Positions 11,239 through 53,656 of a stretch of DNA of 64,000 nucleotides are shown in pieces. The position numbers and the translations under genes are program-made. The stretch's first letter is position 1. The number at the start of each line of letters is the position of its first letter. The notes under the pieces were generated by a model, which was given only the letters and a program-made list of their open reading frames with translations, searched no databases and was not told the DNA's origin. The DNA comes from Hamadaea tsunoensis DSM 44101 (GTDB lineage Bacteria > Actinomycetota > Actinomycetes > Mycobacteriales > Micromonosporaceae), in NCBI RefSeq assembly GCF_000428945.1, contig NZ_AUAX01000019.1, positions 62,001 through 126,000 on the forward strand, in the 5' to 3' direction.

Positions 11239-11440
11239 CACCCGTCATCGATCAAGAAATCGGCGACCCGGGCCCACCTACCGGAAGATCCTTCCCACAC
11301 CCCGGGAGAAAGCCGACGATCAAGCAGCTCGGGCGTGATCTACAGCGGTAGAGACGTCAAAACCCGCCCCGTATCGGACAGTCGCGACAAAGCCCGGGGG
11401 AAGCCGACCGCCTGCTCGCCGCATGACCGCGGCCCGAGTC

Positions 11441-11514
11441 CGGCGATCTTGCGCGAATGTCCGGGCATTTCGCGTACACCGGACGAAATTCGGGACATTC
11501 GCGCAAGATTGTCG
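11441..11514. repeat. 74-bp dispersed palindromic repeat, copy A
   Basis: The left arm resembles the consensus CGACGATCTTGCGCGAATGT and the right arm is its near-complement (one difference in ATTGTCG), with a ~32-bp loop that is itself partly paired. It lies 56 bp beyond the stop of the minus-strand hydrolase at 11571 and downstream of the plus-strand FxsT-like gene, so between converging ends. Other copies are at 22743, 30096 and 37649. Confidence 0.9.
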
Positions 11515-11570
11515 GAACACGTGGTCGGATGCTGCACGGGTGCCGGGGTGGGGCGGGGGTGGGTGCCGGG

Positions 11571-22691: not shown

Positions 22692-22742
22692 CCCACCCTC
22701 CCGCCGCCCCGCCGCCCTTGCCCGCCGCGGGTCGCCGACCCC

Positions 22743-22816
22743 CGACGATCTTGCGCGAATGTCTCAAATTCCGCGGCGTTTGTCCGGAAAGCCCGGACAT
22801 TCGCGCAAGATCGTCG
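22743..22816. repeat. 74-bp dispersed palindromic repeat, copy B
   Basis: Perfect 21-bp arms (22743-22763 and 22796-22816; core GATCTTGCGCGAATGTC) with a 32-bp loop containing TCCGG. Located between the convergent ends of the GH20 gene (52 bp before) and the Pro-rich membrane protein gene (35 bp after). It could work as a bidirectional terminator. Confidence 0.92.
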
Positions 22817-22850
22817 GAAAACGGAGGGATCGCCGGAAGCGGAGGGTGGG

Positions 22851-26640: not shown

Positions 26641-27156
26641 ATGTCCCCTCTGCGCAGGCGGCCGCTCGACCTGGTATTGGTGATCTTCTTCGCGGTGAAC
26701 CTGCTCGTGGTGACGTACATGATCGATCTGGAACAGATCGTCATCGCCGATCCGGGGGCGTTCACCTATCCGGTGTGGCCACCCGCGCCCGTCATCGACC
26801 TCGTGCACTGGTACGGGCGTGCCTACGATCCGCTGCTGATGGCACGGCCGGCGTTCTGGCGGATGACGATCTGGATCGACGTCCTCGGCTTCGGCCCGTT
26901 CTACGCCTGCGCGATCTACGCGTTCGTGCGGCGGCGGAACTGGATACGCGTACCGGCCCTGGTGTGGAGCGGGCTGATGCTGGCCAACGTGCTGATCATC
27001 CTGATGGAGGAGCGGTACGGGATCCACTCGGCGCCGTCCTTCGGGCGGGTGCTGGCCGCCAACGCGGTCTGGCTGCTCATGCCGCTGGTCGTGATCTTCC
27101 GGATGCGCCGGGAGCCGTTCCCCGTGGATCCGATTCCCCGGGAGGCGCTCCCGTGA
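26641..27156 (+). CDS. EXPERA/emopamil-binding-like membrane protein
   Basis: 171 residues with four hydrophobic helices: PLDLVLVIFFAVNLLVVTYM, WIDVLGFGPFYACAIYAFV, ALVWSGLMLANVLIILMEER and AANAVWLLMPLVVIFRM. Polar intramembrane residues and the HWYGRAYDPLLMARPAFW loop recall the EXPERA domain of TMEM97/EBP-like proteins. In bacteria the role is unknown. Its TGA overlaps the GTG of the next gene (GTGA), so it is translationally coupled to the SDR. Confidence 0.7.
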   Translation: MSPLRRRPLDLVLVIFFAVNLLVVTYMIDLEQIVIADPGAFTYPVWPPAPVIDLVHWYGRAYDPLLMARPAFWRMTIWIDVLGFGPFYACAIYAFVRRRNWIRVPALVWSGLMLANVLIILMEERYGIHSAPSFGRVLAANAVWLLMPLVVIFRMRREPFPVDPIPREALP

Positions 27157-28133
27157 GTTTCGTCGAGCGGTACGGGGCGTGGGCGGTCGTCGCCGGTGCG
27201 TCGGAAGGGATCGGGGCGGCTTTCGCCCGGCACCTGTACGGCCAGGGGCTGGGGGTGGTCCTGGTCGGCCGCCGGAAGGAAGCGCTGTCAGCCTTCGCCG
27301 CGACTCTCACGCCGCCCGGCGGGGCCTCGCCCGCCTCGCCCGCCTCGCCCGCCTCGCCCGCCTCCGGCGGGGCCGGCGGGGCTGCCCAAGATCCGGTTTG
27401 GATCAGGGATCGCCACGTAATCTTGGGCCAAGATTCGGGTGATTTCCCTGATCCAAACGGGATCTTGGGGCCGGGGCCGGGACTGGGGCTGGGGCCGGAC
27501 TCGGGGTACGGGCAGGGGCAGGGGCGGGTGCGGGTGGTGGTCGCGGATCTGGCGACCGATGCCGGGCTCGCCGCGTTGTTCGAGGCGACCGGCGACCTGG
27601 AAGTCGGGATGGTCGTGGCGAACGCCGCGCTCTCGCCGATCGGGCCGTTCGTCCGGGCCGCCGAGGACGACCTGCTGCGCGCCCTCGACCTCAACGCGCG
27701 GGCACCCATGCGGCTGGCCCGGCACTACCTTCCGGCCATGGCCGACCGGCGCCGCGGTGGTTTCGTCGTCATGTCCTCGCTCGCCGGCCAGCAGGGCTCC
27801 CCGGGCCTCGCCGCGTACGCGGGCACGAAAGCGTTCGGCGCGGTGCTGGCCGAGAGCCTGTGGGCGGAGCTGCGGCCCAGCGGGGTCGACGTGCTGGCCT
27901 GTGTCGCCGGTGCGGTGGCGACGCCCGGACTCGCGCAGACCGCGGCGAAACGGGCGCCGGGTACGGTCAGCCCCGAAACCGTTGTCGCGGCGGCCTTCCG
28001 GGCGCTCGGCAAGCGGCCGGTGACCGTCCCGGGTGGACTGATGCGCTGGTCGTCGGCGTTCATGCGGCGGGTGCTGCCGAGGCGTACGGCGGTCACGATC
28101 ATGGGGAACGCTTCGAAGGACGTCCTCGGCTGA
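27153..28133 (+). CDS. SDR family oxidoreductase carrying an in-frame palindromic repeat insertion
   Basis: 326 residues, whereas the family is normally ~250. The N-terminal cofactor motif is GASEGIG, followed by LVGRRKEAL; the second half has VVADLA, VVANAALS, Ser in VMSSLAGQQG and Tyr222/Lys226 in YAGTK, so all catalytic residues are present. Between strands beta3 and beta4 (residues ~57-128) lies extra sequence: four ASP repeats from 9-bp tandem units (27324-27359), then residues ~78-106 encoded by an 86-bp dispersed palindrome, then a Gly/Pro-rich run. GTG 27153 overlaps the upstream stop. Substrate unknown; a surface loop expansion may be tolerated. Confidence 0.88.
   Translation: MSFVERYGAWAVVAGASEGIGAAFARHLYGQGLGVVLVGRRKEALSAFAATLTPPGGASPASPASPASPASGGAGGAAQDPVWIRDRHVILGQDSGDFPDPNGILGPGPGLGLGPDSGYGQGQGRVRVVVADLATDAGLAALFEATGDLEVGMVVANAALSPIGPFVRAAEDDLLRALDLNARAPMRLARHYLPAMADRRRGGFVVMSSLAGQQGSPGLAAYAGTKAFGAVLAESLWAELRPSGVDVLACVAGAVATPGLAQTAAKRAPGTVSPETVVAAAFRALGKRPVTVPGGLMRWSSAFMRRVLPRRTAVTIMGNASKDVLG
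27385..27470. repeat. ~85-bp dispersed palindromic repeat inside a coding sequence, copy E
   Basis: Arms CCCAAGATCCGGTTTGGATC and its near-complement (27385-27409 and 27445-27470) enclose an inner palindrome AATCTTGGGCCAAGATT. It is read in frame as peptide containing ILGQDSGDFPDPNGILG. Related copies are at 47718 and 53574, both intergenic. Confidence 0.92.
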
Positions 28134-30083: not shown

Positions 30084-30095
30084 CACCCCAGCATC

Positions 30096-30170
30096 GGACG
30101 ATCTTGCGCGAATGTCCGGGCATATCGGGTACTCCGGACGAAATTCGAGACACTCGCGCAAGATCGTCGG
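30096..30170. repeat. 74-bp dispersed palindromic repeat, copy C
   Basis: Arms GACGATCTTGCGCGAATGTC (30097-30116) and near-complement (30149-30168; one base different, GACACTCG). It ends about ten bases from the stop codon of the aldo/keto reductase gene and so sits just downstream of it, like the other copies. Confidence 0.9.
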
Positions 30171-37616: not shown

Positions 37617-37648
37617 GCCGCCCACCGTACCCGCCGCCGTGATCTTCC

Positions 37649-37723
37649 CGACGATCTTGCGCGAATGTCTCGTGAGGCGTCCGGTTATGCCCCGGATGCC
37701 CGAACATTCGCGCAAGATCGTCG
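37649..37723. repeat. 74-bp dispersed palindromic repeat, copy D
   Basis: Left arm CGACGATCTTGCGCGAATGT (37649-37668) pairs with 37704-37723. It lies 16 bp beyond the stop of the GH95-like gene at 37740 (minus strand) and ~33 bp upstream of the S51-like start, again just 3' of a gene. Confidence 0.9.
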
Positions 37724-37739
37724 AAAATGGAGCTAGGGG

Positions 37740-47717: not shown

Positions 47718-47803
47718 CCCCAAGATCCGGCTTGGATCACGGAAGTCACCCGAATCTTGGGCCATGATTCGGGTGACTTCCCTGATCCCAACGGGATCAC
47801 GGA
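47718..47803. repeat. ~85-bp dispersed palindromic repeat, copy F
   Basis: Begins CCCAAGATCCGGCTTGGATC; inner arms GGAAGTCACCCGAATC (47741-47756) and complement are perfect, with TTGGGCCAT as loop. It lies between converging ends of the ABC ATPase gene and the epoxide hydrolase gene, and may act as a bidirectional terminator. Same family as copies E and G. Confidence 0.9.
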
Positions 47804-53573: not shown

Positions 53574-53656
53574 TCAAGATCCCGTTTGGATCAGGTTTTC
53601 GCACGTAATCATGGGCCATGATTCGGGTGATTTCCCTGATCCAAGCGGGATCTTGG
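53574..53656. repeat. ~85-bp dispersed palindromic repeat, copy G
   Basis: TCAAGATCCCGTTTGGATCA opens and GGGATCTTGGGG closes it (53574-53656), with an inner ATCATGGGCCATGAT palindrome. Located 6 bp after the tmsB stop and ahead of the luciferase-like gene; an ATG within it (53618) is probably not used as a start. Confidence 0.9.

What the first reader, a model, noticed from the sequence alone, without database searches (positions are those of the whole stretch)
27324..27500. Palindromic repeat inserted in frame in an SDR enzyme
Seen directly: the 86-bp repeat at 27385-27470, whose relatives at 47718 and 53574 are intergenic, is part of the coding frame of an otherwise intact SDR with all catalytic residues. 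The protein is ~70 residues longer than the family, the extra length falling between beta3 and beta4. Adjacent 9-bp tandem units (27324-27359) and a Gly/Pro run add to it. This resembles the Rickettsia palindromic elements that create new protein segments, but in an actinomycete.
Basis: partly seen in the sequence, partly recalled or inferred. Interest (0 to 1): 0.85.

Follow-up and report, generated by a model that had tools for sequence, protein, structure and literature searches.

The report
Palindromic repeats inserted into bacterial proteins
A short DNA hairpin repeat that normally sits just after genes, in an estimated few hundred copies, has also landed in frame inside at least four unrelated proteins of this bacterium, adding a peptide (predicted to be floppy in the one case modelled), much as was described in Rickettsia.

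Summary
The SDR gene (27153-28133, 326 aa) is open through an 84-bp palindrome (27386-27469). The insert lies between helix alphaC and beta3, not beta3-beta4. None of 16 aligned orthologues, three of them congeners, has it. The palindrome belongs to a genus-restricted family: 90 copies in 2.23 Mb of the 9.48-Mb genome, about 380 extrapolated; 4 of 300 family genomes match, the four held members of this genus. Copies sit a median 31 bp after stop codons and 49 of 90 lie between convergent genes, so the usual role looks like a 3'-end hairpin.

The SDR is not alone. Of 148 copies examined, four are in frame in real genes (SDR, CydC, a molybdopterin oxidoreductase, AtuA), all in the same frame, all in loops or linkers. 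The CydC linker of all three congeners carries a related palindrome in frame, and CydD does in two. A second, unrelated palindrome family also has a copy in frame. AlphaFold2 leaves the SDR insert disordered and the core intact. This works like Rickettsia palindromic elements; descent was not tested. Codon-position variation shows no peptide-level selection.

The parts
27153..28133 (+). SDR oxidoreductase gene carrying the in-frame insert (326 aa; GTG start overlaps the stop of the upstream gene)
   Evidence: (PF00106 104.8 bits)
27386..27469 (+). 84-bp palindromic element, read in frame as residues 78-105 (AQDPVWIRDRHVILGQDSGDFPDPNGIL)
27309..27384 (+). C-rich stretch before the element (53% C), coding Pro/Ala/Ser/Gly; holds the 9-bp tandem units
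27324..27359 (+). four 9-bp tandem units GCCTCGCCC
   Evidence: read directly
27471..27531 (+). G-rich stretch after the element (59% G), coding mostly Gly/Pro
47720..47801 (-). second copy of the element, between convergent genes
53575..53656 (+). third copy of the element, 7 bp after a stop codon
26641..27156 (+). upstream gene (EXPERA family, PF05241), overlapping the SDR start by 4 bp; the neighbour is kept in congener G001

Best explanation
A palindromic DNA repeat family of this genus, with no transposase of its own, has multiplied in the genome (about 380 copies extrapolated here). Its usual place is just behind stop codons, where its transcript would form a long hairpin that most likely acts as, or is tolerated as, a two-way transcript end. 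One plus-strand frame was free of stops in every full copy checked, 84 bp is exactly 28 codons, and no target duplication is seen, so a copy that lands in a gene in that phase adds a 28-residue peptide without shifting the frame. Such copies survive only in flexible places. In the SDR it sits in the alphaC-to-beta3 loop; by Rossmann topology this is an alpha-to-beta loop on the face away from cofactor and catalytic residues. The enzyme should still fold, with a disordered loop of about 70 residues. SHOWN: the family, its placement, the open frame, in-frame copies in four proteins, absence of the SDR insert in aligned orthologues, intact catalytic residues, an AlphaFold core with a disordered insert. 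INFERRED: mobility, termination, translation of the peptide, retained activity.
For: SDR insert absent from 16 of 16 aligned orthologues. Four in-frame copies with flank coding scores of 78.8, 53.5, 37.1 and 16.2 against 1.5 for the next candidate. Their genes are confirmed by family models: CydC TIGR02868 392 bits over a 329 cut-off, PF00174, PF07287 plus PF23544, PF00106. The molybdopterin insert is absent in the G002 and G003 orthologues. CydC carries an in-frame palindrome in all three congeners. In the contiguous sample frame +1 is open in 82 of 82 exact-length copies, frame +0 closed in 82, frame +2 closed in 57. Placement: 49 of 90 between convergent genes against 306 of 1581 gene pairs (binomial p 5e-16 for 49 of 81); median 31 bp after stops, n=128. 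RNA fold of the consensus -57.8 kcal/mol. AlphaFold: pLDDT 90 or more for 192 residues, below 50 for 67-70 and 72-120. SDR dN/dS about 0.25-0.32 against congeners.
Against: No IS200-like transposase (PF01797: 0 of 1 own genome) and no target duplication was found, and no other transposase was searched for, so mobility is unproven. The flanks show no T-run of a classical terminator, so termination is inferred from position only. The window SDR is somewhat more diverged from 13 outgroup orthologues (58.9% identity) than the congener SDRs are (62.4-64.0%), which would also fit slightly relaxed constraint. Eight of 14 variable stem pairs show no clear excess of pairing. No expression or protein data. 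Gene calls are from my own script. The 58 extra copies were picked by peptide score and long open frames, so 4 of 148 is not a rate; the contiguous sample gives 2 of 90, one of them the given copy.
Confidence: 0.82

Rival explanations
1. The element is simply a REP-like 3'-end hairpin; the in-frame copies are rare neutral accidents with no lasting role, and the SDR is on its way to becoming a pseudogene.
For: Only 2 of 90 copies in the contiguous sample lie inside genes although 86-90% of the sequence is coding by my caller. Heterozygosity across copies is lowest at third codon positions of the open frame (0.149, 0.201, 0.115 in 82 copies; same order in 140), the opposite of peptide-level selection. 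The SDR is somewhat more diverged than its congeners.
Against: The SDR frame, catalytic residues and operon overlap are intact; dN/dS about 0.25-0.32. CydC carries such a palindrome in frame in all four species examined, so at least there it has lasted or recurred.
Confidence: 0.35
2. REPIN/RAYT-type mobile repeats copied by an IS200-like transposase.
For: High copy number, palindromic shape, extragenic preference, no target duplication.
Against: PF01797 gives no match in this genome, while the same search rings in 5 of 14 control genomes.
Confidence: 0.07
3. The peptide itself is selected: the family is kept as a coding module.
For: In the contiguous sample 0 of 82 copies have a stop in frame +1 against 8.4 (sd 2.4) expected when each observed difference gets a random base. 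All four insertions use that one frame although minus-strand frames are also open in 78 and 61 of those 82 copies.
Against: Codon-position variability shows no protein-like pattern. Mutation bias and the palindrome itself may keep stops out. Four is a small number.
Confidence: 0.1
4. Assembly or sequencing artefact at the SDR.
For: Draft genome in 68 contigs.
Against: The locus is inside a 250-kb contig; the copy differs from every other copy listed (best other 98%); the same pattern recurs in three more genes and in other species' assemblies.
Confidence: 0.02

Closest known systems
Rickettsia palindromic elements (RPE; Ogata et al. 2000, as described in passages of PMC10969869 and PMC2229807)
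   Same: Palindromic repeat with an open frame and conserved peptide, in intergenic places and in frame inside unrelated protein genes.
   Different: RPEs are given as 105-146 bp or ~150 bp, with nearly half inside genes; here 84 bp, 2 of 90 inside genes in the contiguous sample, strong 3'-end placement, a large high-G+C genome; no sequence link tested.
Protein-coding palindromes of Wolbachia and Methanocaldococcus jannaschii (named in a passage of PMC2996958)
   Same: Same idea outside Rickettsia.
   Different: Not compared in sequence; the hosts are unrelated.
ERIC/RU-1, Correia/NEMIS and YPAL small mobile sequences (table and passages of PMC2229807)
   Same: Short stem-loop repeats, some with frames fused to genes.
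   Different: All three are marked as having target duplications in that table; none was seen here.
REP sequences / REPINs (PMC3733652, search listing and start of abstract only; REPIN/RAYT recalled)
   Same: Extragenic, palindromic, high copy number.
   Different: One 84-bp hairpin instead of 20-40 bp, no IS200-like transposase found, in-frame copies.

Membership tests
Rickettsia palindromic elements (as a mechanism class) | Long palindrome able to fold as a stem-loop | tested here: met
   consensus fold -57.8 kcal/mol, arms paired along most of the length; arms 27385-27426 / 27428-27469 81% complementary
Rickettsia palindromic elements (as a mechanism class) | Carries an open frame with a conserved peptide | tested here: met
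   frame +1 open in 82 of 82 exact-length copies of the contiguous sample, 140 of 140 with picked copies
Rickettsia palindromic elements (as a mechanism class) | In frame inside several unrelated proteins and also intergenic | tested here: met
   four genes in G000; 82 of 90 sampled copies intergenic
Rickettsia palindromic elements (as a mechanism class) | Located in unstructured or surface parts, protein still folds and works | tested here: inconclusive
   SDR insert predicted disordered, core confident; the other three proteins were not modelled; activity not testable here
Rickettsia palindromic elements (as a family by descent) | Sequence relation to known RPE families | not tested
   no RPE sequences were compared; among 300 family genomes the element matched in this genus only
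REPIN/RAYT | Y1 IS200-like transposase in the genome | tested here: not met
   PF01797 0 of 1 own genome, controls 5 of 14
Classical MITE | Target-site duplication | tested here: not met
   2-bp match 14 against 11.1 expected, 3-bp 7 against 4.5, no offset or length reached the 3-sd mark
Rfam RNA family | Match over gathering score | tested here: not met
   window 27100-27700: one match up to E 1, a miRNA family at 20 bits against a gathering score of 70, E 0.29
Classical SDR | Rossmann fold with cofactor motif and N-S-Y-K | tested here: met
   PF00106, motifs, model; the motif names are recalled

The most novel reading that the evidence does not exclude
In this genus, coding palindromes are not one-off accidents. 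The cydC linker (and the cydD linker in two species) holds a palindrome in frame in every congener looked at; in G000 and G003 it is of a type common among the copies of that species, in G001 and G002 of a third subfamily repeated there, and each is still palindromic. The element may keep being rewritten inside the gene by copying from the genomic family (concerted evolution), so that a hairpin DNA/RNA element and a protein linker evolve together, with the phase kept open for translation.
Probability: 0.3. Interest if true: 0.78.

Novelty: new variant of a known kind. Interest (0 to 1): 0.66.

Why it matters
In the texts seen here, coding palindromes are described for Rickettsia, Wolbachia, one methanogen and some enterobacterial and neisserial repeats. 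A large, G+C-rich genome with an abundant 3'-end hairpin family that occasionally becomes protein gives another setting in which to ask how selfish repeats make new protein segments. The natural pairs (congener enzymes with and without the insert) make the cost of such a segment directly measurable, and four genomes of one genus let the same insertion site be followed over time.

Tried and rejected
Insert as an ancient family trait: rejected, 0 of 16 aligned orthologues have it; one further orthologue (G024) was dropped because my motif filter did not find its frame. CCCAAGATC in the congener SDR loop as the target site or as a remnant: looked striking, but the frame differs and the congener elements seen mostly lack that end, so I treat it as probably chance. 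Target duplications: none. RAYT: none. Element on plasmids or phages or, by an exact pattern of its centre, in viral contigs: no match. Peptide-level selection: codon-position test negative. CydC insertion by length alone: the linker varies in length across the family (coordinates), so only the element sequence counts there; the loci could not be cut out, so outgroup linkers were not read. AtuA: no congener match at the limit used, so its insertion could not be polarised. Synteny for the other copies of the window contig: too patchy. First SDR alignment used wrong-strand frames for G001 and G003; redone. First CydC alignment lost the G000 and G002 rows; redone. The count of open frames included copies picked by peptide score; recounted on the contiguous sample. 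Papers: PMC10969869, PMC2229807 and PMC2996958 by passages; PMC3733652 and others by search listing only; Ogata 2002 (PMC186582) not held. Searches (16 to 20 titles listed each, of up to 4,265 papers) listed no title on protein-coding palindromes in actinobacteria; that is the extent of the novelty check.

Full report
The finding. The gene runs 27153-28133 on the plus strand, 326 aa, without a stop, and is an SDR by Pfam (PF00106, 104.8 bits). Its GTG start overlaps the stop of the upstream EXPERA-family gene, whose orthologue also sits beside the SDR orthologue in congener G001. The palindrome is 84 bp in 46 of 47 nearly full copies of the first sample and occupies 27386-27469 here.

Where it sits in the protein. 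Outgroup orthologues read about ...RRxEPLxxLAxxLPxxxxxVxADL...; the window reads ...RRKEALSAFAATLTP[insert]GRVRVVVADLA.... The AlphaFold2 model (21 sequences, pTM 0.79) gives beta1 10-14, beta2 34-39, alphaC 42-52, then no element until beta3 126-130, and beta4 151-156; pLDDT is below 50 for 67-70 and 72-120 and at least 90 for 192 residues. So the insert is in the alphaC-beta3 loop, not beta3-beta4. By Rossmann topology (general knowledge) this is the face away from the cofactor. Of 17 other orthologues found in 101 family genomes 16 could be aligned; none has the insert. Outside the insert the SDR is 67-68% identical to its three congeners, with dN 0.25-0.28 and dS 0.87-1.01; it is a little more diverged from 13 outgroups (58.9%) than the congeners are (62.4-64.0%).

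The family. In 2,234,267 bp of this genome (C17 and C7 whole, 400 kb each of C1, C4, C3 and C5) there are 90 copies, 84 of them nearly full length, about 40 per Mb, or ~380 in the genome if the rest is alike. In 300 family genomes four have matches, the four held members of this genus. Congeners carry shorter or different subfamilies with a related core. By my own gene caller, 49 of 90 copies lie between convergent genes, 29 between tandem genes, 3 between divergent ones, 1 at the end of a fetched stretch, 6 overlap a gene end, 2 lie inside genes; among neighbouring gene pairs 306 of 1581 are convergent and 356 divergent (49 of 81 gives p 5e-16). The distance from stop codon to element has a median of 31 bp (n=128). 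Of 182 convergent gaps of 60 bp or more, 49 hold a copy. In three called genes the element supplies the C-terminus and stop (C1:283289, C7:295376, C4:191753).

Flanks. The 30 bp outside are C-rich on the left (0.47-0.48) and G-rich on the right (0.50-0.51), more than in convergent gaps without a copy (0.378 and 0.384, n=133). Fragments of the element's ends recur within 150 bp in 16 of 84 copies against 31 of 975 control points (Fisher p 1e-7). The SDR insert shows the same layout: 53% C before, 59% G after. This fits a gain of more than the element's own 28 residues.

More in-frame copies. Four have coding sequence on both sides in one frame through the element: CydC (C5:263233, between membrane and ATPase parts), a molybdopterin oxidoreductase (C42:20022, linker after predicted membrane segments), AtuA (C1:413860, between the AtuA and ferredoxin-like domains) and the SDR; the next best candidate scores 1.5 against 16.2-78.8. 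Families are confirmed; the membrane and linker descriptions are my reading of the sequence. All four read the plus strand in frame +1. In the 82 exact-length copies of the contiguous sample that frame is open in 82, frame +0 in none, frame +2 in 25, and the minus frames in 61, 0 and 78.

Other species. The molybdopterin protein of G002 and G003 lacks the insert. CydC of G003 has ...AQDPRWIRDQGRILVQDSTENPDPG..., an element of the type common among the congener copies seen; G001 and G002 have ...QITxxHASExQDxMxNRDL..., a third palindrome subfamily that is repeated in G001 (181 first-look candidates, 40 scored, 58 rows counting both strands), G002 and G003 but gave no match in G000. CydD of G001 and G003 also carries one in its linker; in G000 I see none; G002 gave no CydD linker. 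Among 71 congener copies examined (some loci overlap) only the cydC and cydD copies of G001 and G003 had coding sequence on both sides. The CydC linker is naturally variable in length, so there I rely on element sequence, not length.

Mechanism. No target duplications, no IS200-like transposase, no match on plasmids or phages nor, by an exact pattern, in viral contigs. Of 14 variable stem pairs, three pair clearly more often than independence predicts (3-81: 110 against 99.5; 4-80: 98 against 80.7; 38-46: 98 against 75.2, of 140), three a little more (9-75, 10-74, 12-72), and eight do not, so symmetry is kept at the ends and tip but not throughout. The open frame has fewer stops than random substitution would give (0 of 82 against 8.4, sd 2.4), but third codon positions are the least variable (0.149, 0.201, 0.115), so I do not claim selection on the peptide. 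My reading: a DNA/RNA hairpin family tolerated or useful behind genes, whose length and phase let it enter proteins at flexible places.

A second family. The unrelated 77-bp palindrome at 11439, 22741 and 30094 has 48 copies in the same sample, 20 of them between convergent genes, and two inside called genes: one in a linker of an 890-aa sigma-factor-like protein (C5:316453), one near the C-terminus of a TetR-like protein (C1:133378) (the protein names are my reading of the sequence, no family search was run). So the pattern is not limited to one sequence.

Known or new. Passages in PMC10969869, PMC2229807 and PMC2996958 describe in-frame palindromes in Rickettsia, Wolbachia and a methanogen, and fusions of ERIC and NEMIS repeats. 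The titles listed by my searches include none for actinobacteria. Hence a new variant of a known kind.

Noticed in passing
window 11439-11515, 22741-22817, 30094-30170, 37647-37727: A second palindrome family (GACGATCTTGCGCGAATGTC...), 48 copies in 2.23 Mb, similar 3'-end placement, one copy in frame in a linker of a sigma-factor-like protein (C5:316453).
   Followed up: partly
L281, L301 (G001 and G003 cydD): CydD, the neighbour and paralogue of CydC, also carries an in-frame palindrome in its linker in two congeners; none seen in G000.
   Followed up: partly
G000:C1:283289, C7:295376, C4:191753: Three called genes end inside an element, which supplies their last residues and stop codon.
   Followed up: no
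G000:C17:150041, C17:240764, C1:281871: Repeated fragments of the element's ends beside the element, as if the hairpin ends were re-copied.
   Followed up: partly
G000:C7:48744-209965: A stretch of about 160 kb of contig C7 without a copy, against about one per 25 kb in the sample as a whole; could be acquired DNA.
   Followed up: no
G001, G002, G003 SDR orthologues: Congener SDRs have a shortened alphaC-beta3 loop (PALDLPGPKIE) whose DNA holds CCCAAGATC, the end sequence of the G000 element; judged probably chance.
   Followed up: partly
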